In this document: one piece after another, positions 6,918-53,031 of the stretch
How positions within the stretch are numbered: position 1 is the stretch's first letter
Layout of the letters: each line of letters starts with the position of its first letter
DNA from: a virus
Reading direction: 5' to 3' (one strand)
DNA length: 64,000 nucleotides
IMG/VR virus record: IMGVR_UViG_3300026521_000471
Span: 1-64,000 of that record
The notes under the pieces: model-generated
What the model was told of the DNA's origin: nothing
What the model saw: the letters and a program-made list of their open reading frames with translations, nothing else
The model's database searches: none
Position numbers and translations under genes: made by a program

Positions 6918-7442
6918 TCAAAATACAAATATATCTTGGACATCTTTTGGTAAATATTGTGGATCATCTGTCAATTCATAAAGAATTAAATCTAATTCAT
7001 TTTTAGGTTTGTTCATTATAGATGAAAAATGTTCATAAAATTCACTACCATATTTTTCTAAAGTATCTACAAATAATAATAGTTTTCCTCCACCCATATA
7101 ATCCATTTCTAATTCATTATTTTTAAATCCTGAACTTACAATAATTGTTAAATCTGCATCTAATATATTAAAATTATTAAGATATTCTTCATCAAATTTA
7201 ATATCGTAAGGGTTATATAAATCTCTAATTAATACATTGATATTATCATATACATTATCTATATTTAAACCTATATACCAACTGATAGGTTCATTGACAT
7301 CTTCAAAATACATTTCACTATCATAGTTTGCTTCATATTTTTCAGCTATATTTTGAAAGATTTTATCTAGTTGTTTTTTTACAGGATTAGATGACTTTTC
7401 CAGCCAATTACTTAATTTTTCTATATCGTTCATACTTAACAC
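6918..7442 (-). CDS. unknown acidic protein
   Basis: A 174-residue acidic protein (start ATG at 7442 after AAGGTG) lying upstream of 6576-6893 on the same strand. The sequence alternates helical and beta stretches and contains a glycine turn DYMGGGKLLLFVDTL. It ends PKDVQDIFVF, vaguely like the PExxI tail but lacking PE. Not recognised. Confidence 0.65.
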   Translation of the reverse strand: MLSMNDIEKLSNWLEKSSNPVKKQLDKIFQNIAEKYEANYDSEMYFEDVNEPISWYIGLNIDNVYDNINVLIRDLYNPYDIKFDEEYLNNFNILDADLTIIVSSGFKNNELEMDYMGGGKLLLFVDTLEKYGSEFYEHFSSIMNKPKNELDLILYELTDDPQYLPKDVQDIFVF

Positions 7443-10237: not shown

Positions 10238-10996
10238 TTAAAAGATAAATAAATCTGTTACTATTTTTGGACGATATTTTTCATCATTTGTTTCTAAATA
10301 ATATTCACCTAGTAATATATGATTATCATTTAACGATTTAATTTCATCCAAAACCCATGTACGTTTTGAACTATTTGATGGGAGACTTTTATAAATTATC
10401 TCGAGCACTTCTAAATTTTTACTAAATTTCTTAATTAGGCTAATGATGATATTAGATTCATTTAAAGAAATTAATAATGGTATTATACTTTTAGAAATAT
10501 TTCCATTTTTAACAATAGTGCTTAAAATATATCCCTTATCATTAGAAAAGAATGCATCATCTATAGCTCTTTTTAAAAATATTTCCATTTTAGTTTCAGA
10601 TAATGAAGGGGCTATTTTTTGATAAAAATGTATAAGAAAATCAGATTTAGGATTTTGACTTGGATATGCTGAGTTATCATTTTCTATTTTAGATTTTCTT
10701 TCTTCGTCTGCTTTTGAAAATAAGTTATCTATAAATTTTTTAAATTCGTTATCATTTAATCTTTCTATAAAAGGAATTGCGTCATAATTGCTAATTAAAT
10801 CATAAGGGACTTCTTCTATAAACCAATCTTTTACTTTTTTAGAGAGTTCATTATTTTTTAGAATTTTTGAAAAACTATAAAAGTCATCAAATTCAATAGC
10901 CTTTTGTAAAAGTTGATTTTGTTCATCGTCTGAAATTTTACCAATATTGTCTAATTCATAAGAAAAATTCATATCATTTAGTTTGTCTATATTCAT
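10238..10996 (-). CDS. unknown 252-residue acidic protein
   Basis: A helical acidic protein, possibly of repeat (HEAT-like) type judging by the regular Leu/Ile spacing and helix-turn pattern, starting at 10996. An AATAAATA octamer about 23 bases upstream may act as a late promoter. Ends VTDLFIF. Family not recognised. Confidence 0.7.
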   Translation of the reverse strand: MNIDKLNDMNFSYELDNIGKISDDEQNQLLQKAIEFDDFYSFSKILKNNELSKKVKDWFIEEVPYDLISNYDAIPFIERLNDNEFKKFIDNLFSKADEERKSKIENDNSAYPSQNPKSDFLIHFYQKIAPSLSETKMEIFLKRAIDDAFFSNDKGYILSTIVKNGNISKSIIPLLISLNESNIIISLIKKFSKNLEVLEIIYKSLPSNSSKRTWVLDEIKSLNDNHILLGEYYLETNDEKYRPKIVTDLFIF

Positions 10997-15041: not shown

Positions 15042-16229
15042 TTATTTCTTTCTCAGTTTATTTTTTAATTCTTCTATTTGCTTAATTTTTTTCTCAGTAA
15101 TATCTTGTTTGATTGAAATATAACCAATCTTTACCCCATCTTTATCATAATATGGTGAAATCACATTATTTGACCAATAAGCACCACCATTTTTCTTTTT
15201 AGATTTAATTTCTCCTACCCAGTTTTTATCCGCTTCAATAGTTTCCCATAATTTCTTAAAAACATTTGCATTCATATCCGGATGTCTTATAATATTATGT
15301 GGTTCGCCTAATAATTCTGTTTTTGAATAGCCTGTTGTTTTACAAAAAGCTGATGATACATCTACAATTACTCCAAATAAATTCGTCTTGGTAAATATGA
15401 CATGTTTTTCAAAATCAGAATGCATACTAGTTAGTTGTGTATTAAGAATATCATTTTGTGTCATTAAGTCCGAAAAATCTTTGCTGTATTCATCGGCGAT
15501 TTTTTCATTTTCAAAATCAGCCCTTTCTTTTATTTTAATCATTGAATATATATAAATTATTCCAGAAATAAGCATGATCATAGAGACAATGAATAAAACA
15601 AATAACTGTAAATGTTTAATATTATCATTAATATCATTTATTGGTATCGTAGCTTCAGTAACCCCTCTAGCATCCCCTATTTTCCATTTAAAATCCCAAG
15701 TCTTTAACGGGTGGTGATTATGGCATTGGACACAAGATTTATTAGTCATATATTCGGTTTTCGCATACGTTAGATAATCTGTCCCGTCCTTTTCCGTTCT
15801 TAAAAATAGTTCCTTATGACCCTTTATATTTTTTAAGACCTTCAGCTGTAATTTTGTCAGAACTCTATCAGATTGATTTTTAAATGGAAAATTACTATAA
15901 ACAGATATACGTAAATTTGGATCGTCTATCATTGAAGCTACATCATGCATAAATGTTGCAGGATACGGTATTGTATTATTATCTTTATGTTCTGTACTAA
16001 ATTTTATACCATTAATATTATATATATCATCAACTACGTATTTGGCATAGTATTCTTTCGTTTTTAAAAGTAGATTTACTACTGATTTAGTTTTATCTTC
16101 TGCTAAATCAACTGCATATTCATGCATTTTATATGGAATAAAGACGTAAAGTGATATTAATGTAACAATATAAGATATAGTCACTCCAATTAAAAATTTA
16201 TTAGAAAACATTTGTAAAATATTTTTCAT
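15042..16229 (-). CDS. membrane sensor: Tll0287-like (DUF3365) haem domain plus PAS, no output domain
   Basis: A 395-residue protein. Membrane segment 1 spans residues 11-32 and segment 2 208-231; between them is a periplasmic domain with the c-type haem motif CVQCH (166-170) and GDARGVTEATIPI, the pattern of the Tll0287-like/DUF3365 family. A PAS domain follows (about 275-380) with IRHPDM and KNGGAYWSNN, the aerotaxis-receptor type common in Campylobacterota. No kinase, GGDEF or chemotaxis domain follows, so output must go through another protein. ATG at 16229 is chosen for its GAGGGA site; an earlier in-frame ATG would overlap the divergent gene. Probably acquired from the host. Confidence 0.85.
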   Translation of the reverse strand: MKNILQMFSNKFLIGVTISYIVTLISLYVFIPYKMHEYAVDLAEDKTKSVVNLLLKTKEYYAKYVVDDIYNINGIKFSTEHKDNNTIPYPATFMHDVASMIDDPNLRISVYSNFPFKNQSDRVLTKLQLKVLKNIKGHKELFLRTEKDGTDYLTYAKTEYMTNKSCVQCHNHHPLKTWDFKWKIGDARGVTEATIPINDINDNIKHLQLFVLFIVSMIMLISGIIYIYSMIKIKERADFENEKIADEYSKDFSDLMTQNDILNTQLTSMHSDFEKHVIFTKTNLFGVIVDVSSAFCKTTGYSKTELLGEPHNIIRHPDMNANVFKKLWETIEADKNWVGEIKSKKKNGGAYWSNNVISPYYDKDGVKIGYISIKQDITEKKIKQIEELKNKLRKK

Positions 16230-16292
16230 AAGTCCCTCAGTTTGTTGATTTATCAACTTATTTATTTTCGGATTTACTTTCTTTAATTTATG

Positions 16293-16315
16293 ATTAAGGT
16301 CTAATATAATATAAT
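16293..16315 (+). promoter_or_regulatory. class A promoter
   Basis: ATTAAG (16293-16298), 11-base gap, TATAAT (16310-16315), 22 bases before the ATG at 16338. Confidence 0.7.
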
Positions 16316-16337
16316 ATAAAAAATTAAAAAAGGATAT

Positions 16338-16736
16338 ATGATGCATATACGTAGTTTAGATTATTTTGATAAAGTGGGTCTGGTAACAAGCGGACTCTCT
16401 ATTTTTATTTCAAGTATTTTTTTACTTATGAGTTTTAGTTATTTAACAGAGAATTATTTAGTTATTTTAGGGTTGGTAAGTATTTCTTTAGTCCTAAATA
16501 ATTACTACCTTACCATAACTACACCAGAAATATTTAAAAAGATTAATGATGATCCCTGGAAATTTATTTTAGAACAAAGACCTATACTCGGACCTATTGC
16601 CGTTTTATTAAGTTTTTTATTAATAGGGACATTAATTAGTGGTAATCTTTTTGCATGGCAAATATATATTATATATTTTATTATGCTTATGCTTATGAAT
16701 CATACCTATTCAAAAAAATATAAACTTAGAGATTAG
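16338..16736 (+). CDS. predicted four-segment membrane protein
   Basis: A 132-residue hydrophobic protein with likely membrane segments at about 13-33, 37-58, 84-101 and 104-124 and a basic C-terminus (KKYKLRD), suggesting both ends in the cytoplasm. Start ATG at 16338 or 16341 after AAAAAGG. Lies divergent to the haem/PAS sensor. Family unknown. Confidence 0.7.
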   Translation: MMHIRSLDYFDKVGLVTSGLSIFISSIFLLMSFSYLTENYLVILGLVSISLVLNNYYLTITTPEIFKKINDDPWKFILEQRPILGPIAVLLSFLLIGTLISGNLFAWQIYIIYFIMLMLMNHTYSKKYKLRD

Positions 16737-26841: not shown

Positions 26842-28137
26842 GTGGAAAATATTGATATAGGTATTATTGATGTAGAATCTTTAAAAACCTTAAATAAAAT
26901 TTTAGAATCAAAAAAAGAATATATTATAAATTATTGGCTAGATGATGAAAAACTCAAGCCAATTTTTGAGATGTTGGAAATAGAAAAAGAAACATTTAAA
27001 AGCAAATACGCATATCATATTTTTCATCATTTTCAATCCATTGATTATGATAATATGTATTTTAAAACATATATCGATGAAATGGAAGACAAACAGCATT
27101 TAATAAAATATTTTTACCGATTAATCGCTCATCTAAAGAATAAGATTATATTATTTTTAATACAGTATAACATAGATAACAATGATAAAATATTTATGGA
27201 TGATTCACTGCTATATACGATTGATAATGCTATATCTGAATTATTAGATTCTATAACAAAACATCTTCAAAGAGATTATACTGCAAATACAAAAAAATTA
27301 AAGATATTAGAAAATGCTGCATTAGTTACTAGAACTGATAAAGACGGTAGCATATTATTTATGAGCCCACCATTATTAGAGTTACTAGGATATTCAGAAG
27401 AGGAAATGCTTGGAGCAGGTTTTAATAAAATCAGACATCCCAGAGTTTCTTCTAAATTTTATGAAAAACTATGGAGGACATTAAAATCTGGTAAACCTTT
27501 CAAAGGGACTATTAAAAATTTAACTAAGAATAGAAAAGAAGTAATATTTCATACACAAATTGTTCCTGATTTTAATTTTGATGGAGAAATAGTTGGTTAT
27601 ACAGCTATAAAAACAGATTTAACCGATAAAACAAGAGCAAGAACTGACACATTAACAGGTCTTTTAAATCGTTCAGCATTTAATGATCGATTATCTGAAC
27701 TTATAGATAGATATAACAATTTTCATATTCCAGTTTCTTTAATAATGATTGATATTGATTATTTTAGTGAAGTAAATAATAACTACGGTCATATTACTGG
27801 TGATAAAACTCTAAAACATTTTGTTAAACTAATTAAAGAGATAATTAGACCTACTGATACATTTGCAAGATGGGGAGGGGAAGAATTTATTATAATTCAA
27901 AATAATACATTAGATAATTCTATTAAAACTGCTGAAAGAATAAGAAAACATATAGCAGAAAGCACGTTCCCAGAAGTAGGACAAAAAACATGTAGTCTAG
28001 GTGTGGCAGAATTTAATAATAGTTATGCAGATATAGATTCATTTATAAATGAACTTGATAAAGCATTATATTATTCAAAAGAACATGGACGTAATAAGGT
28101 CTCATACGTAGTTAAAAATGGTATAGAATCTGTTTAA
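26842..28137 (+). CDS. diguanylate cyclase: helical sensor, PAS and GGDEF
   Basis: A 431-residue signalling protein starting at GTG after AAAAAGGG. Residues 1-150 are a helical sensor region. A PAS domain (about 158-262) carries IRHPRVSSKFYEKLW. The GGDEF domain (about 268-425) has DTLTGLLNR, IDIDYF, GGEEF at 345-349, and RPTD at 336-339, the RxxD inhibitory site exactly five residues before GGEEF. The usual FKxxND is FSEVNN here. It should make cyclic-di-GMP from two GTP and be product-inhibited. Rare in phages and probably host-derived; it could alter motility or attachment of the infected cell. Confidence 0.9.
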   Translation: MENIDIGIIDVESLKTLNKILESKKEYIINYWLDDEKLKPIFEMLEIEKETFKSKYAYHIFHHFQSIDYDNMYFKTYIDEMEDKQHLIKYFYRLIAHLKNKIILFLIQYNIDNNDKIFMDDSLLYTIDNAISELLDSITKHLQRDYTANTKKLKILENAALVTRTDKDGSILFMSPPLLELLGYSEEEMLGAGFNKIRHPRVSSKFYEKLWRTLKSGKPFKGTIKNLTKNRKEVIFHTQIVPDFNFDGEIVGYTAIKTDLTDKTRARTDTLTGLLNRSAFNDRLSELIDRYNNFHIPVSLIMIDIDYFSEVNNNYGHITGDKTLKHFVKLIKEIIRPTDTFARWGGEEFIIIQNNTLDNSIKTAERIRKHIAESTFPEVGQKTCSLGVAEFNNSYADIDSFINELDKALYYSKEHGRNKVSYVVKNGIESV

Positions 28138-39469: not shown

Positions 39470-39654
39470 TTGTAGATGTAGATAAAAAGGCAATCCAACA
39501 ACAAATAAAGTTTTTAGTTAAAATAATAAACCAATATCAAAAAAGATTAGAAACTGAACCTCAATTTTTAACTAGAGAAGTTGAAGAAAATTTAGAAAGA
39601 GCTAAAGCAAAATATGATTATATTATTAAAGAATATCCAGACTTAATCATCTAG
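39466..39654 (+). CDS. small protein with C-terminal PExxI-type tail (YPDLII)
   Basis: A 62-residue, single long-helix protein ending KEYPDLII, with Asp in place of Glu. Starts in an ATGA overlap and its end overlaps the convergent HDOD gene by 12 bases. Function unknown. Confidence 0.65.
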   Translation: MIVDVDKKAIQQQIKFLVKIINQYQKRLETEPQFLTREVEENLERAKAKYDYIIKEYPDLII

Positions 39655-41301
39655 ACTATTTTTTAAATCTAATATATTACCGAATGATTTTTTATGAGTT
39701 ATTTGAGCAAAAATATTTTTCATATCATTACCTGAAAGATGACCTCGTTCTGCTTCTCTCATTAAATTTTTTGTTATTTTAAACTCGCCATTATATTTAA
39801 ATAATTCAAATGCTAAATTTATAATATGACCTTGTATTTGTAACGTATTAGAAGCACTAGCATATCCAAATTCTCTGGCTACTGCAATAATTTTTTTCAT
39901 GTTTTGTGGCATATTCCAAATACTAAAAAGCTTCTCAACAGCGTGTAAATTATTAAATCCTAATAGATTCATTTCTAAACTAGTTATAGATTTTGACGAT
40001 TTTTGTAAATTTTTAAAACGATCTACTCTCTCATTAATAATTAAAGCCTGATTTGTCAGGAGCATACCTAGTGGTAATATATGCATAACAGCAGTTAAAT
40101 CATCTTTATCATCTTGGGGTATATCTATAAATTTAATCCATTCTGAAACAAATTTAACTCGGTATTTTGAAACTTCAATTAACTCTTCTAATGAAATATC
40201 ATATGCGTCTAAATATAAACTGTCAAATGTTTCGTTAGCTACCTCTGTTATTGCTAATGCCCCTATTTGTTTTTTACCTAGTAATGATACAGCAATAGAG
40301 ATTTTTGATACTCGATTTGGTAGGCCTATATACGGGGAATTAATTTCCCGTAAAATAATTGCTGAGAACATTGGATCTTGTTCAACAACTTTTACTATTT
40401 GGTTGATATTTGAATTGCTATCAAAACACAATTCTTTTAACTTAGTTAATGTACTAGGTAAAGGTTCAATTGCTTCAGCTAGTTCAACTAATGTAATCTG
40501 CCCTTTATTAATAGGTATTTCAATCTCCGTATTACTACGTTCATATTTTTTAACAATCATAGTCTTAAAATCAGCCATTTTCATATTATGTGTATTATAA
40601 ACATTTTCGATTGCTAATTTTTCTTTAACTAAGTTTAAAGAACTTTCTTTACTGAATTTACTCAAAACATATAAATTTTCAAAATCGAATTCAATATCAT
40701 TTAAACAAACTATGAGATCTATGATATGCCCATCGGGGTATTTTAAATCAGTTATTAAAATTTTTTTACCGGGCATTTTTATAAGGTCAATTGCCTCGGA
40801 TTTAGTAGAAACACTATCCACAAATTTAAATTTTGTACTAAGAATTTCTGTTAATAATTTTGATACTTTTGGATCTCGATTAAGGATCACAATATCATAA
40901 TATTCATTAAGTTTTGGGGAAGTGTAATTTTTACATTGAACGATTGGCGCAGTATCAAATTCAATAGCATAAAATTCTGGATCTTCATGTTGTTGAATTT
41001 GAGTTACCCACCTTTCAATTTGAATAGAAAAGTTTTCAAACCAATTAATCACATCTTGATTAAAAGCACAAGTATAATTTTTTATAAAAAACAAAATATC
41101 TTCTGTTTTTTCAAGGAGAATAGAAATTTCTTCAAATTTATGATAGTAAGTAATAGCTTTTAATGAATGTATCGACCTAAATAATGTGTCGATCAATTTT
41201 GATGAATTAATTTCATCATTTCTAAAATCAATAATAGTGTTATTAATAATTATAGACAAATTATCTAATCTTATAATATAATCTTCAAGTTCTTCAGTCA
41301 T
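39643..41301 (-). CDS. signalling protein: Hpt, degenerate receiver and HDOD domains
   Basis: A 552-residue protein. Residues 1-105 form an Hpt-like helical bundle with FRSIHSLKAI (His-45 as candidate phosphate carrier). Residues about 133-255 resemble a response-regulator receiver: the phosphate acceptor would be Asp-185 in LITDLKYPDG, but the acidic pocket is NRD and the conserved Lys context is weak. An HDOD domain (about 268-470) follows, with LPSTLTKLKEL and EQDPMFSAIILREINSPYIG. HDOD proteins regulate motility and cyclic-di-GMP-linked processes in many bacteria. Unusual for a phage; probably host-derived. Confidence 0.85.
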   Translation of the reverse strand: MTEELEDYIIRLDNLSIIINNTIIDFRNDEINSSKLIDTLFRSIHSLKAITYYHKFEEISILLEKTEDILFFIKNYTCAFNQDVINWFENFSIQIERWVTQIQQHEDPEFYAIEFDTAPIVQCKNYTSPKLNEYYDIVILNRDPKVSKLLTEILSTKFKFVDSVSTKSEAIDLIKMPGKKILITDLKYPDGHIIDLIVCLNDIEFDFENLYVLSKFSKESSLNLVKEKLAIENVYNTHNMKMADFKTMIVKKYERSNTEIEIPINKGQITLVELAEAIEPLPSTLTKLKELCFDSNSNINQIVKVVEQDPMFSAIILREINSPYIGLPNRVSKISIAVSLLGKKQIGALAITEVANETFDSLYLDAYDISLEELIEVSKYRVKFVSEWIKFIDIPQDDKDDLTAVMHILPLGMLLTNQALIINERVDRFKNLQKSSKSITSLEMNLLGFNNLHAVEKLFSIWNMPQNMKKIIAVAREFGYASASNTLQIQGHIINLAFELFKYNGEFKITKNLMREAERGHLSGNDMKNIFAQITHKKSFGNILDLKNSLDD

Positions 41302-42109: not shown

Positions 42110-43682
42110 ATGGCAAAAGAGAAATTTGTTAGGGGTGAAAAACCTCATGTTAATGTGGGAACAGTAGGGCATAGACTATGTGCCATCTCTTGGTAACAAG
42201 GGATTAAAAAGAGTTTAAATTGTCTGGAAACCCCTAAAGCTTCTTTTACTAAAACAGAGCCAGAAATGGCATATGGTATAGTTAATGAAAATTAGAAAGA
42301 AAAAAGAAGATGGAATATGTGGAAACGCTAAGTTCTTTATAATGGGCAATCAGCAGCCAAGTTACCTAACTCAAATATATTGAGATTTCTATGTGAATAG
42401 AATTTAAGGTAGAAGGTTCAGAGACTGTAATAACTCAGTCCGTTAATCTTAATTGAATTTCGGATTATGGTACAGTCCAGACTACAACAACTTTACTTAG
42501 TTAGTTGGCTTATGAAAGTAAGTGTAGTAATTGGTAGATCATGGCAAGACTACTTTAACTGCAGCAATTACAGCAGTAATGGCAGTTAAAAACGGTGCAG
42601 CATTTATGGATTACGATCAAATCGATAATGCACCAGAAGAAAGAGAAAGAGGTATCACTATTGCTACTTCTCATGTTGAATATGAAACTGATAAAAGACA
42701 TTATGCTCATGTTGATTGTCCAGGTCACGCAGATTATGTTAAAAATATGATTACTGGTGCTGCACAAATGGATGGTGCTATTCTTGTTATTGCTGCTACT
42801 GATGGACCTATGGCTCAAACGAGAGAACATATCCTTCTTTCAAAACAAGTTGGTGTACCAGCAATTGTTGTTTTTATGAACAAAGAGGACCAACTTGATG
42901 ATGAAGATAAAGATGAAATGGCTGAACTTGTAGAAATGGAGATTAGAGAACTTCTTGACCAATACGGTTTTGATGGTGATAACACTCCTGTTATTCTTGG
43001 TAGTGCATTTCAAGCTCTTGAAGAAGCAAAAACCGGTACTTTAGGTGAGTGGTCAGAAAAGATTGTACAACTTATGGATTCAGTAGATGAGTGGATTCCA
43101 GAACCAGTTAGAGATACTGATAAGGATTTCTTAATGCCTATTGAAGATGTATTCTCAATTGCAGGTAGAGGTACAGTTGTTACTGGTAAAATTGAGAGAG
43201 GTACAATCAAACTTGGTGAAACAGTAGAAATTGTAGGTATTAAAGACACTCAAACATCAACTGTTACAGGAATTGAGATGTTCCGTAAAGAGATGGAAGA
43301 AGGTTTAGCTGGGGATAATGCAGGTATTCTTCTAAGAGGAATTTCAAAAGATGATGTTGAAAGAGGTCAAGTTCTTTGTAAACCTGGTTCAATAACACCA
43401 CATACAAAGTTCAAAGCGGAAGTTTATGTTCTAAGTAAAGATGAGGGTGGTCGTCATACTCCATTCTTTAATAATTATAGACCTCAGTTCTATTTCTATA
43501 CATCTGATATTACTGGTGCAATTACACTAGAAGAAGGTGTTGAAATGGCTATGCCTGGTGATAATGTGACTATTACGGTAGAACTTATTGCTCCAATGGC
43601 TATCGAAAAAGGAACAACTTTTGCTATTAGAGAAGGTGGTAGAACTGTCGGCTCTGGTATGATTGGAGAAATTATCGAGTAA
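42110..43682 (+). CDS. tuf: elongation factor Tu, interrupted by a group I intron
   Basis: Exons 42110-42172 and 42534-43682 join to a 403-residue EF-Tu, the GTPase that brings aminoacyl-tRNA to the ribosome. Splicing restores GTVGHVDHGKTT (G1). Other motifs are intact: RGITIATSH (G2 region), DCPGHADYV (G3), NKED (G4) and GSAF (G5); domains 2 and 3 follow to [14 protein letters not shown]. The form [16 protein letters not shown] is that of Campylobacterota. Without splicing, translation stops soon after codon 21. Base composition is richer in G+C than the neighbours, in keeping with a host origin or codon selection. It could replace host EF-Tu under stress or defence attack. Confidence 0.95.
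42173..42533 (+). ncRNA. group I intron in the P-loop codons of tuf
   Basis: 361 bases, no ORF. The exon ends GGCAT; GGCAU pairs with GUGCC in the intron, placing U-G at the 5' splice site (P1). CUAU just before it can pair with the first exon-2 bases GUAG (P10). The core shares long strings with the polymerase intron. P7 pairs GACTGT with ACAGTC, whereas the other intron has GACTAT with ATAGTC: a paired substitution that supports the helix. The intron ends in G, and exon 2 continues in frame as VDHGKT. Confidence 0.92.
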
Positions 43683-44782: not shown

Positions 44783-45436
44783 ATGGCTTGTATTAAAGTT
44801 TTAAATAATTTAAGTGCTTTTTCAAAAAGCACTAAACTATATAAAAAAATAGATGGAGCGGATAAAACTCCATCTATAAACTACACACTACATTTTTCAA
44901 AACATCTTAACACTCCAAGAAAAATATCAAATTCAAAAGGTTATCAGTCAAGAATAGTTGATGGGTTAAGATTAAAAAGTTTTAAAATAATCATTGAAGA
45001 TATTTTACCTAAATTAATAGAAAAGGGAGAGGGAAAATATGTTATTTCATTACTTAAATCGGATAATGGTCCAATTCTAAATTTATTAATAGCATTTGAA
45101 AAAAATAAATTTATTGAAAACGAATGGTTTATATTATTAATAACTACCTTAGTTAAAAATGAATCAATGATGTCATTTAAAGATATTCCTGTTGATAATA
45201 GATTGTTTTCTAATATTATTTTTGATGATTTAATGGAAGTACCTATTATTGAACAGACTAAAAATAAACAAGCACAAGAACAATTTAAAAAAAATAAAAA
45301 GAATCAGTATGATCCTGAATACGTCAAGCGAAAATTATTACGACCTGGATTACGTATTAAAAAGAAAGTAAATCCAGGTATTAAACGTAGAGGTTTACGT
45401 ATTGTTAAAAAAAGAAGTGAAAAATATGATGTTTGA
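44783..45436 (+). CDS. unknown protein with very basic C-terminus
   Basis: A 217-residue protein: polar N-terminus, helical middle (about 70-150), then a Lys/Arg-rich last 60 residues with the near-repeats RPGLRIKKKVNPG and RRGLRIVKKR. The basic tail suggests nucleic acid or ribosome binding, possibly with the actin-like protein encoded upstream as a filament adaptor (speculative). Overlaps the next gene. Confidence 0.7.
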   Translation: MACIKVLNNLSAFSKSTKLYKKIDGADKTPSINYTLHFSKHLNTPRKISNSKGYQSRIVDGLRLKSFKIIIEDILPKLIEKGEGKYVISLLKSDNGPILNLLIAFEKNKFIENEWFILLITTLVKNESMMSFKDIPVDNRLFSNIIFDDLMEVPIIEQTKNKQAQEQFKKNKKNQYDPEYVKRKLLRPGLRIKKKVNPGIKRRGLRIVKKRSEKYDV

Positions 45437-45785
45437 ATATAGTCCAGAATATAAAGTCGAACCAATCAGTACAAAATTCAATGACGATGAATTTTATTAT
45501 ATCGGGTATATAAACCAAAATGGAAAGGTTGATATTTTAGAAATTATGATAGGAGAATTATATTCTGAATCATCACCATATTCACATAGCAAAAGATATT
45601 ATGTAAAAGTGTTAATTCCCCAAGAATACTACAAAAGTTTCTTTCATAAATGGATGGATTTAACACATACAAAATATTATTTAAACGATACTAAAATTGA
45701 TATTGCGTTTATACACCTCGCTGAGAAAACCCAATGGCTAAAGACCATTGGGATGAATCAGCAATTATTTGACATTTTACATTAA
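45426..45785 (+). CDS. unknown 119-residue protein
   Basis: ATG at 45426 (or 45429) lies inside the end of the previous gene, after AGAAGTG. Mixed strand/helix with an acidic start (FEYSPEYKVEPI). Last gene before the TnpB element. Not recognised. Confidence 0.65.
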   Translation: MMFEYSPEYKVEPISTKFNDDEFYYIGYINQNGKVDILEIMIGELYSESSPYSHSKRYYVKVLIPQEYYKSFFHKWMDLTHTKYYLNDTKIDIAFIHLAEKTQWLKTIGMNQQLFDILH

Positions 45786-45790
45786 TTTAT

Positions 45791-45798
45791 TGTAAAAT
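45791..45798 (+). promoter_or_regulatory. class B promoter element before tnpB
   Basis: TGTAAAAT 35 bases before the tnpB start. Probably belonged to the phage gene now interrupted by the element, since it lies outside the element. Confidence 0.5.
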
Positions 45799-45832
45799 AA
45801 GTATATAGATATAGAGTTTAAGGAGGATTGAG

Positions 45833-47023
45833 TTGAAATTTCATCGTAATTACAAATTCAGATTACAACCAAATACTGAACAATCCGATTTCCTTAATCA
45901 TTATTTCTTTACTGCAAATCAAGCCTGGAACTTTGCTTTGAATTTAAAAATCAAAGACCTTTCTGTCAATTCTTCTCTGCCGAAGGCAGATAGGAAATAC
46001 TTAAAGTTCAAAGATATTTATTCTCTTACAAAAGAACACCTTAAAGAACGAGGAATTAAATACAATTCAGGTGTAATTCAAGATGAACTAAGAAAATTAG
46101 ATGATACGTTTTCTCGATTCCATAAGAAAATTGGTGGATTTCCTAAATTCAAGTCCTCAAAGAAAATCGAACAATCAATCATCATCAGGAATCAAGCAAC
46201 TTATTGGGATGAAATGGAATTGGAGATCTTCAGAAAGAAAATCAGAACTAAATTCCATCGAGAAATTCCTTTGGAATCTAAATTTACTGGTGGTATTGTA
46301 AAAAGAGAGTCAGATGGAAACTATTATTTTATTGCTAATTTGATCATTAATGATAAAAATCAATATCCAAAAACAGGAACAGAATGTGCTCTTGATTTGA
46401 ATGTAGAAAATATAGCTATTTCAGATTCAAATGGAAATCGAAGATTGATTAAATTGGAGGATTTTTCAAAAAGTAAATATTCAAAGAACTTTTTAAAGTT
46501 ACAAAGAAAACTTTCAAAAAGATACAAAGAAAAGAACTTTTCTAAAAATACCAAACGATTACAAAAGAAATCAAATCGAATGTACAAGAAAATCAAAAAC
46601 AAAAAAGAGGATTTTTTTCACAAGCTCAGTAATGAGCTGACTAATCAATATGATAGAATCACAATAGAAGATCTGGAAATCAAAAAGATGAAAGAATCGA
46701 AATCAAATCGACTCAATCGTCTGATTTCAGATGTAAGTTGGGGTTCGTTGATACAAAAAATCAAATATAAACAAGAACAAAAGAACAAATTGATTAGAGA
46801 ATTAAATCCAGCTTTTAGCAGTCAGAGATGCTTCAAATGTGGTCATATCAGTAAGAACAATAGAAAAACGCAAAGCGTTTTTAATTGTGAAAACTGTGGA
46901 TACACTACTCATGCAGACCTGAATGCTTCAGATAATCTCTTAGATTATGATAATTGGTCTCTGGAACAGATGACCTTGATCCAGCAATGGAATCAGAATC
47001 TTTGTATCGAGAATGTCAGTTAA
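45833..47023 (+). CDS. tnpB: TnpB (IS200/IS605-type RNA-guided nuclease)
   Basis: A 396-residue TnpB, ancestor-type relative of Cas12. The RuvC-like catalytic residues are Asp-188 (CALDLNVENIAI), Glu-279 (ITIEDL) and Asp-362 (HADLNASDN). The zinc finger has CFKC (333-336) and CENC (352-355). The N-terminal OB-like part opens MKFHRNYKFRLQPN, as is normal. Length is typical and no residue is missing, so it should be active. Starts at TTG after AGGAGG. No tnpA transposase gene lies next to it, so movement would need help in trans or rely on DNA cutting and repair. Confidence 0.93.
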   Translation: MKFHRNYKFRLQPNTEQSDFLNHYFFTANQAWNFALNLKIKDLSVNSSLPKADRKYLKFKDIYSLTKEHLKERGIKYNSGVIQDELRKLDDTFSRFHKKIGGFPKFKSSKKIEQSIIIRNQATYWDEMELEIFRKKIRTKFHREIPLESKFTGGIVKRESDGNYYFIANLIINDKNQYPKTGTECALDLNVENIAISDSNGNRRLIKLEDFSKSKYSKNFLKLQRKLSKRYKEKNFSKNTKRLQKKSNRMYKKIKNKKEDFFHKLSNELTNQYDRITIEDLEIKKMKESKSNRLNRLISDVSWGSLIQKIKYKQEQKNKLIRELNPAFSSQRCFKCGHISKNNRKTQSVFNCENCGYTTHADLNASDNLLDYDNWSLEQMTLIQQWNQNLCIENVS

Positions 47024-47100
47024 TTCTGAAATTCGATGATTGGAGTGCCTCTCGGCACTCCCTTAGAAGCCCAATCGTCTTTAGCGGTTGGGTAGTTCAC
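47024..47100 (+). ncRNA. IS605-type right end and probable omega (guide) RNA scaffold
   Basis: Directly behind tnpB: hairpin GGAGTGCC/GGCACTCC (47042-47061), then CCCAATCG (47070-47077) / CGGTTGGG (47085-47092), ending GGTAGTTCAC at 47100. This is the structured right end of IS605-type elements from which the guide RNA scaffold derives; the RNA probably starts inside tnpB. The guide would be the flanking bases from 47101 (AAAAGACACACC...). Confidence 0.75.
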
Positions 47101-47101
47101 A

Positions 47102-47335
47102 AAAGACACACCATTAGAAGCCGAAATAGCCTTTTATTCAATATTGCAACGCCCTCATAAAGATTTCATGGAAATTATTAAAAGGTCAGAAGAAGGTTTC
47201 GCTATTAAATATCCGGATATTTATTTAAATAGGGTTCTTACTAAACAAAAAATGACCTGTTCACATCCTCCATTTTTAGAAGGAAAATCTATAAAGATAA
47301 TCAATAATTCTGCGAGTTTTATTTCATATAATTAA
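47102..47335 (+). pseudogene. 3' part of a gene interrupted by the TnpB element
   Basis: The frame is open from the very edge of the element: KDTPLEAEIAFYSILQRPHKDF and on to TAA at 47335, about 78 codons, without a plausible start near its beginning. It contains IKYPDIYLNR, an internal PE/PD string. Joining the base after 45832 to 47101 would fuse it in frame to TTG AG(A) at 45828-45832, suggesting the original start lay there. A shortened product from ATG 47168 remains possible. Confidence 0.6.
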
Positions 47336-47342
47336 AAAAAAT

Positions 47343-47350
47343 TGTAAAAT
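47343..47350 (+). promoter_or_regulatory. class B promoter element
   Basis: TGTAAAAT 28 bases before the ATG of the phosphoribosyltransferase gene at 47378. Confidence 0.5.
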
Positions 47351-51651: not shown

Positions 51652-52262
51652 AATTAGATGATATTACTATGAGTGAATTTGACTGGTGTATCCACGCTAT
51701 TTTAGTTGCTGGAAAATCAGCAAAATTTGGAACTTCAAAAATTACTATATTAAAAAAATTTGCAAGTAATATGGATTTAACCATGGAAGATTATTTATTT
51801 AAGTTGTGGAATGAAGATAAATTGATTGATAAATTGAAAGAAATTAAAACTGGTAAATATCAGTTACTTGGTAAAACTTTCGATTACTTGTTTAAGAATA
51901 AATTAAATATTTTTTCAAATTTAGATACTACTGAATTAGAAAAAATCCCTGGTATTGGAATGAAGTCATCAAGATTTTTAAAGTCATTAGTTGAATCAAA
52001 TCATAATGATTTCGCAATATTGGATGTTCATATTTTGAAATGGATGAAAACATTAGACTTAAACTTAGAAATTAAAATACCTAGTTCAACACCTAATAAA
52101 AAGGAATATTTAATATTAGAAAAAGTCTTTATAGCTGAGGCAAATAAAAGAGGCAAAACTTCATTTGAATTAGATAGAGAAATATGGTATAATTATACTA
52201 AAGATTCAGGTTTGCAAAAGTTGGAAAAAAATAAAGTTGAGGGTATAAACTATGAAAATTAA
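51648..52262 (+). CDS. HhH-GPD DNA glycosylase-like protein
   Basis: A 204-residue helical protein with the helix-hairpin-helix LEKIPGIGMKSSRFL (about residues 98-111) and AILDVHILKWM after it. Lys-106 sits where endonuclease III and OGG1-type enzymes have the lyase Lys, and Asp-126 where they have the catalytic Asp, so it may be a bifunctional glycosylase/AP lyase removing damaged or modified bases. No iron-sulphur cysteines are seen. The stop overlaps the NAD kinase start. Confidence 0.8.
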   Translation: MKLDDITMSEFDWCIHAILVAGKSAKFGTSKITILKKFASNMDLTMEDYLFKLWNEDKLIDKLKEIKTGKYQLLGKTFDYLFKNKLNIFSNLDTTELEKIPGIGMKSSRFLKSLVESNHNDFAILDVHILKWMKTLDLNLEIKIPSSTPNKKEYLILEKVFIAEANKRGKTSFELDREIWYNYTKDSGLQKLEKNKVEGINYEN

Positions 52263-53031
52263 AGCTGTTTTTAATAGAGATGATAAAAGACAACAAACAT
52301 ATATAAAATATTTAGAAAGAACTTTTCCAGAAATAATCAATGAGCCTAACCCAGATTTATTTTTGGTTGTTGGTGGTGACGGTGCTATGCTACATGCTCA
52401 TAAAGAGTATGGTCATTTAGGAAAACCATTTCTAGGAAAAGGTTTTGGGACTCTTAATTTCATTATGAATCATTTTGAAAATGATTTTGAAATTATTGAT
52501 GGATTACTAGAAGGAACTATGGTTCCAACCATAATAAAGACTGAAAAAATTAAGGTTATAGTCAAGAAAACCAACGGTAAAAAAATTATAAAAGAGGCAA
52601 TAAATGATATTGTGATTGGTAATGATATAATGGATTATCATCATTTTCAAATTGATTCGGAAAGAGGATCTTTTGAAAGATTTAACTTTTCTGGATTAGG
52701 TATTTGTATTTCAACTCCATTAGGTTCAACAGCATTTAACCTTAATAATGGTGGTAAAGTTTTGCCACCAGATGCTGAAATGTGGAGCATTACATCCGTA
52801 GTATCTGACCATAATGTGAATGAAGTTATGATGGCTCAAACAGTTGATATAAAAATAAAAAGTTCTAGACATTCACCAACATTGTACGTTGATGGAACAG
52901 CAACAGCAATACCATTAGAATACGGTGATAAAATTAAGTTAAAAAAATTTAAGCATAAGTTTAAACTCGCTTTTATCGAACCAAAGGTATTCTTTAAAAA
53001 AAGAATGAAACTTATTCAAAAAAAGAGATAA
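52252..53031 (+). CDS. nadK: NAD kinase
   Basis: A 259-residue protein of the NAD kinase family, which makes NADP from NAD and ATP. GGDGAML (residues 41-47) contains the catalytic Asp of the GGDGT/N motif, and STPLGSTAFNL matches the substrate-binding (T)PTGSTAY motif; VDGTATAIPLEYGDKIKL agrees with the C-terminal region. Length is slightly short, as in compact bacterial enzymes. A phage NAD kinase would raise NADPH for deoxynucleotide synthesis. Overlaps the glycosylase-like gene by 11 bases. Confidence 0.92.
   Translation: MKIKAVFNRDDKRQQTYIKYLERTFPEIINEPNPDLFLVVGGDGAMLHAHKEYGHLGKPFLGKGFGTLNFIMNHFENDFEIIDGLLEGTMVPTIIKTEKIKVIVKKTNGKKIIKEAINDIVIGNDIMDYHHFQIDSERGSFERFNFSGLGICISTPLGSTAFNLNNGGKVLPPDAEMWSITSVVSDHNVNEVMMAQTVDIKIKSSRHSPTLYVDGTATAIPLEYGDKIKLKKFKHKFKLAFIEPKVFFKKRMKLIQKKR

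What the first reader, a model, noticed from the sequence alone, without database searches (positions are those of the whole stretch)
45828..47335. TnpB element with guide RNA interrupting a phage gene; empty site can be rebuilt
tnpB is intact and followed by an IS605-type right end. The frame directly after the end (KDTPLEAEIAFYS...) is open but start-less. Joining 45832 to 47101 gives TTG AGA AAA GAC in frame, and leaves TTGAG beside the element, close to the TTGAT target motif of ISDra2. The guide (from AAAAGACACACC) would thus direct cutting of the empty gene in phages lacking the element, a homing-like drive. There is almost no left end and no tnpA.
Basis: partly seen in the sequence, partly recalled or inferred. 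Interest (0 to 1): 0.72.

Follow-up and report, generated by a model that had tools for sequence, protein, structure and literature searches.

The report
TnpB jumping gene in jumbo phage
A small "jumping gene" that carries an RNA-guided DNA cutter sits inside a gene of a giant bacterial virus, and its guide points exactly at the virus's uninterrupted version of that gene; it is a clean new example of a known kind of element, with a different left edge and recognition motif from those first proposed.

Summary
It is a TnpB-only IS200/IS605-family insertion (IS1341-type) at 45713-47100, 1388 bp, in a 224-kb phage record. Three phage copies (this one and two in a second, 290-kb phage record) fix the ends: each follows TTTAT and ends in ...GGGTAGTTCAC. 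Helicobacter IS605 elements share the right end and the left-end spacing. So a normal left end with a hairpin exists about 100 bp upstream of the proposed edge, and the target motif is TTTAT, not TTGAG. Joining 45712 to 47101 gives one in-frame 173-aa gene with TTTAT directly 5' of the guide target, the layout needed for TnpB to cut the empty site. TnpB keeps its catalytic residues and is under purifying selection. No TnpA was found in either phage record. No phage with the uninterrupted gene was found, so cutting and homing stay inferred. New member of a known kind; modest interest.

The parts
45426..45712 (+). 5' part of the interrupted phage gene (96 codons from ATG; then read into the element to a stop at 45783-45785)
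   Evidence: Open frame with positive codon score, other frames negative; joins in frame to 47101
45708..45712 (+). Left flank / inferred target motif and TAM, TTTAT
   Evidence: Identical 5' of all three phage copies at unrelated sites; Helicobacter IS605 relatives have TTTAA (two) or TTGAA (one) at the same spacing
45713..47100 (+). Whole element, 1388 bp, TnpB-only IS200/IS605 (IS1341-type)
   Evidence: Sequence shared with L002 and L032 only between these ends
45720..45762 (+). Left-end stem-loop; inner hairpin 45730-45752 is the reverse complement of the one in L002
   Evidence: DNA fold z = -4.06; orientation compared
45769..45798 (+). Promoter-like site TTGACA-18-TAAAAT upstream of tnpB
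   Evidence: 11 of 12 consensus matches; conserved in L002
45833..47023 (+). tnpB, 396 aa, TTG start behind AGGAGG; RuvC residues D188, E279, D362 and four-Cys zinc finger present
   Evidence: Pfam PF12323, PF01385, PF07282; alignment to ISDra2 TnpB 8h1j; dN 0.049 vs dS 0.250 against L002
46970..47100 (+). Right end / guide-RNA scaffold (5' limit approximate); hairpins at 47042-47061 and 47070-47092, ends TTCAC
   Evidence: RNA fold z = -4.0; last 80 nt 99-100% identical in three copies; terminal hairpin shared with Helicobacter IS605
47101..47116 (+). Inferred guide, AAAAGACACACCATTA (about 16 nt, as in ISDra2)
   Evidence: First non-shared base after the right end; guide length by analogy with ISDra2 (PMC8612924)
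47101..47335 (+). 3' part of the interrupted phage gene (DTPLEAEIAFYS... to TAA)
   Evidence: Open, start-less, positive codon score only in this frame

Best explanation
A TnpB-only IS200/IS605-family element inserted 3' of a TTTAT inside a phage gene and split it. Shown by sequence: the ends, the motif, an intact and selected tnpB, a folded right end, and an in-frame empty site. Inferred: a Y1 transposase acting in trans (from the host or a co-resident element) placed it by peel-and-paste; TnpB matures a guide RNA from the 3' end of its own transcript, with the flank AAAAGACACACCATTA as the guide; TnpB then cuts TTTAT+AAAAGACACACCATTA, that is, the uninterrupted gene on sister genomes that lost the element or on co-infecting phages that lack it; repair from the element-bearing copy restores or spreads the element.
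For: Three phage copies at unrelated sites, all with TTTAT on the left and TTCAC at the right end. Same left spacing (11 nt from flank to AGAAA.CCC) and right end in Helicobacter IS605 with tnpA. Frame-perfect join into a 173-aa ORF with coding-like codon use on both sides. Catalytic residues present; dN/dS about 0.2. Structured right end, z = -4.0. Rebuilt site places the inferred TAM directly beside the guide match, as required for ISDra2 TnpB (PMC8612924); TTTAT is the flank assigned to solo-tnpB elements of S. islandicus (PMC10640517).
Against: No uninterrupted homologue of the gene was found, so the empty site rests on frame and shared ends. No transposase in either phage. No expression or cleavage data. 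The left-end hairpin of this copy is flipped relative to its relatives, so mobility of this copy is doubtful.
Confidence: 0.85

Rival explanations
1. One reading: the element begins at 45832 beside TTGAG, has almost no left end, and the gene's start codon was the TTG of that site.
For: The join 45832/47101 does read in frame, and TTGAG resembles the ISDra2 motif TTGAT.
Against: 120 bp upstream of tnpB are shared with the L002 copy (9 of 120 differ) and partly with L032; TTGAG is therefore internal. The upstream ORF supplies the missing 5' part of the gene.
Confidence: 0.01
2. A decayed, immobile insertion whose TnpB no longer matters: a passenger in a dead phage gene.
For: No tnpA; left-end hairpin flipped; a relative in the second phage has already lost most of tnpB.
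Against: tnpB is full length with dN/dS about 0.2, catalytic residues in place, and the guide scaffold is nearly invariant. Selection could however reflect the past.
Confidence: 0.1
3. TnpB co-opted by the phage as a weapon or regulator against competing phages rather than as a selfish element.
For: Guide points at a phage gene, so phages with the empty allele would be cut; TnpB is intact.
Against: The guide is simply the insertion flank, and the element has ordinary IS ends and has moved to other sites; the insertion costs the phage a gene; no target-bearing rival phage was found.
Confidence: 0.04

Closest known systems
TnpB-only IS200/IS605 elements (IS1341 group), e.g. ISCaje1-3 in Campylobacter phages CP220/CPt10 (PMC2853527)
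   Same: TnpB as the only gene, no tnpA, LE and RE present, size in the published 1252-1393 bp band of short IS1341 elements (PMC9956272); related copies at different sites of two phages
   Different: Flank TTTAT instead of ATTTT; a jumbo-phage record; sits inside a gene that can be rebuilt in frame
Helicobacter IS605 (tnpA + tnpB; L038, L039, L040)
   Same: Right end up to 94% identical over 34 nt, same 11-nt left spacing, CTTTAG loop, ends TTCAC
   Different: Carries tnpA; flank TTTAA (or TTGAA) instead of TTTAT; the Helicobacter phage TnpBs matched are only about 30% identical
ISDra2 TnpB
   Same: RuvC triad, zinc finger, right-end guide RNA layout, pentanucleotide flank
   Different: TTGAT motif, has tnpA; low sequence identity
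PATE (palindrome-associated element)
   Same: The third phage copy (L032) keeps both ends and has lost nearly all of tnpB, like the PATE of PMC7290912
   Different: The window copy itself keeps tnpB and is not a PATE

Membership tests
IS200/IS605 family, TnpB-only (IS1341 group) | TnpB with RuvC triad and zinc finger as the only gene | tested here: met
IS200/IS605 family, TnpB-only (IS1341 group) | No tnpA remnant in the element | tested here: met
   No Y1_Tnp match in the whole record; only 120 bp lie between the left edge and tnpB
IS200/IS605 family, TnpB-only (IS1341 group) | Subterminal hairpins at both ends, no terminal inverted repeats | tested here: met
IS200/IS605 family, TnpB-only (IS1341 group) | Insertion 3' of a fixed tetra/pentanucleotide without target duplication | tested here: met
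   TTTAT at three of three phage copies; right flanks of the three copies share nothing with each other and do not repeat TTTAT
IS200/IS605 family, TnpB-only (IS1341 group) | Mobilised by a Y1 transposase in trans | not testable with these tools
   Inferred from copies at unrelated sites
Active TnpB RNA-guided nuclease | Guide RNA from right end plus flank; TAM-dependent cutting | not testable with these tools
   Layout fits; needs RNA and cleavage data
IStron (group I intron plus IS) | Group I intron inside the element that splices it out of the mRNA | tested here: not met
   No intron match in 45600-47350 at E up to 10, while the same kind of search finds one at 42180-42497
TldR-like nuclease-dead TnpB regulator | RuvC catalytic residues lost | tested here: not met
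   D188, E279, D362 present
Homing element | Occupies the same allelic site in relatives, with empty alleles known | tested here: inconclusive
   Copies are at different sites and no empty allele was found

The most novel reading that the evidence does not exclude
In jumbo phages a TnpB-only element whose left end may no longer be recognised by a transposase (flipped hairpin) is kept and spread between co-infecting phages only by guide-directed cutting of the empty gene, that is, RNA-guided homing has replaced transposition.
Probability: 0.12. Interest if true: 0.55.

Novelty: new member of a known kind. Interest (0 to 1): 0.3.

Why it matters
It is an exactly bounded case in a jumbo phage where the motif, the guide and the empty gene can all be written down from sequence, so phage-versus-phage TnpB homing can be tested directly. 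TnpB-driven spread has been shown for plasmids (PMC11870625) and TnpB-only elements are known in phages (PMC2853527); in the limited literature search made here I did not find the drive tested between phages.

Tried and rejected
Looked for uninterrupted homologues with each half and with the joined protein in viral contigs and phage records and with the empty-site 17-mer: its eight hits are in genes without detectable similarity to the joined protein. Searched genome contigs twice for TnpB relatives: none. Right-end and left-end DNA patterns in viral contigs gave only the second phage's two copies. Rfam has no family that matches the guide scaffold. My first version of the joined protein (...FIHKD...) put the left edge 4 bp too far right; the third copy and the reading frame corrected it to 45712/45713. 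A class-level search around Helicobacter genomes was not possible. The interrupted protein has no convincing family match, in parts or joined; its function is unknown. An IStron and a nuclease-dead TnpB regulator were considered and rejected.

Full report
What was claimed.

What is there. The window is the first 64 kb of a 224,467-bp virus record. tnpB (45833-47023, TTG start behind AGGAGG) has all three Pfam domains of the family.

Boundaries. A 93%-identical TnpB lies in a second virus record of 289,880 bp (L002) in unrelated surroundings: two genes from the window's neighbourhood, EF-Tu and the ParM-like protein, are absent there. Alignment shows shared sequence from TTTATACAC at 45708 to TTCAC at 47100 (plus one chance A) and none outside. 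The same record holds a third, 0.35-kb copy (L032) that keeps both ends but has lost nearly all of tnpB. The three left edges read TTTAT|ACACCTCGCTGAG, TTTAT|ACACGTCGCTGAG and TTTAT|GCACCACGCTGAG. The three right edges all end ...GGTTGGGTAGTTCAC and then differ: AAAAGACAC, ACTATTATA, TATACTAAA. Where exactly the flank ends and the element begins on the left rests on two further facts. Helicobacter IS605 elements have the same 11-nt distance from their left flank (TTTAA in two of three, TTGAA in one) to AGAAATCCC. And with the right edge fixed at 47100, a left edge after 45712 restores the reading frame, whereas an edge after TTTATACAC (45716) runs into a stop. The element is therefore 45713-47100, 1388 bp.

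Left end. Far from being almost absent, it carries a stem-loop (45720-45762) that folds better as DNA than all 200 shuffles and a TTGACA-18-TAAAAT promoter-like site. TTGAG at 45828-45832 is internal to the element.

The interrupted gene. The frame starting at ATG 45426 runs open into the element, where it meets a stop at 45783. Joined at 45712/47101 it continues to 47335 as a 173-aa protein. Codon-usage scores are positive in the expected frame on both sides and negative in all other frames; the element-derived tail of the upstream frame is negative. At this base composition the chance of 77 codons staying open is about 6e-4. The protein has no convincing relative, so its function is unknown, and the empty site is supported by frame and by the shared element ends, not by an observed empty allele.

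Nuclease and guide. TnpB aligns over most of its length with ISDra2 TnpB, with D188, E279, D362 and four cysteines in place. Between the two full copies dN is 0.049 and dS 0.250. Right end plus guide folds at z = -4.0. The last 80 nt are 99-100% identical in all three copies, and the terminal hairpin shows paired changes against a Helicobacter element (CCCAATCG/CGGTTGGG against CCCACCCG/CGGGTGGG). In ISDra2 the guide RNA is the right end plus about 16 nt of flank, and TnpB cuts that flank when it lies next to the TAM (PMC8612924). Here the rebuilt site reads TTTAT-AAAAGACACACCATTA, the inferred TAM directly beside the guide match. TTTAT has been assigned as flank of solo-tnpB elements of Sulfolobus islandicus (PMC10640517).

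How it got there and what it does. No Y1 transposase was found in either phage record, yet the three copies occupy three unrelated sites with the same motif. That is the mark of transposition, most simply by a TnpA acting in trans, as argued for other IS605 sets (PMC7290912). Homing alone would have left the copies at one allelic site. Once in place, TnpB and its guide would cut genomes that carry the empty gene: sister genomes after excision, or co-infecting phages without the element. Such a drive has been shown for plasmids (PMC11870625), not here.

A detail on mobility. The inner left hairpin of the window copy (CCCAATGGCTAAAGACCATTGGG) is exactly the reverse complement of that of L002. 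L032, the Helicobacter left ends and all right ends carry the CTTTAG loop. A conserved loop pentanucleotide was proposed as the TnpA recognition feature in another IS605 set (PMC7290912), so this copy may be immobile. This is inference.

Origin. The best-ranked plasmid TnpBs are from Campylobacter (33%), the better phage hits include Helicobacter phages, and the right end best matches Helicobacter. A Campylobacterota host is plausible, not shown.

Verdict. A well-bounded new TnpB-only IS200/IS605 element in a jumbo phage. A very similar situation, TnpB-only elements at different sites of related phages, is published for Campylobacter phages CP220 and CPt10 (PMC2853527).

Noticed in passing
42110-43682 (intron about 42173-42533): A group I intron (Rfam Intron_gpI, 27.1 bits, E = 7.8e-5, below the family's gathering score of 50) splits a phage-encoded EF-Tu gene inside its P-loop: [21 protein letters not shown] | VDHGKTTLT. 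The 5' exon end GGCAT pairs with GTGCC just inside the intron, with the usual U-G at the splice site (by eye). A phage EF-Tu gene interrupted at the P-loop by an intron deserves its own look.
   Followed up: partly
L002:536-13165 and window 6918-7442, 10238-10996 (- strand): At least 11 genes in a row in the second phage (mostly dissimilar, some ankyrin-like by eye) end in the same C-terminal motif, LPxEVKDIFIF-like; two minus-strand genes of the window end the same way (QYLPKDVQDIFVF, KYRPKIVTDLFIF). Looks like a shared C-terminal tag of unknown purpose.
   Followed up: no
45730-45752: The left-end hairpin is inverted (loop CTAAAGA) relative to L002 and L032 (loop TCTTTAG), an exact flip of a perfect inverted repeat against L002.
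   Followed up: partly
15042-16346 (-), 26842-28137 (+), 39643-41301 (-): The phage encodes bacterial-type signalling proteins: a Tll0287-like/PAS sensor with a CxxCH motif, a PAS-GGDEF protein and an HDOD protein.
   Followed up: no
437-1980, 52252-53031: GrpE and DnaJ chaperone genes and an NAD kinase-like gene in the phage.
   Followed up: no
L032:326-675: A 0.35-kb derivative of the same element in the second phage keeps both ends but joins the first about 30 codons of tnpB to its last codons in frame, a PATE-like non-autonomous copy with an intact guide scaffold.
   Followed up: yes
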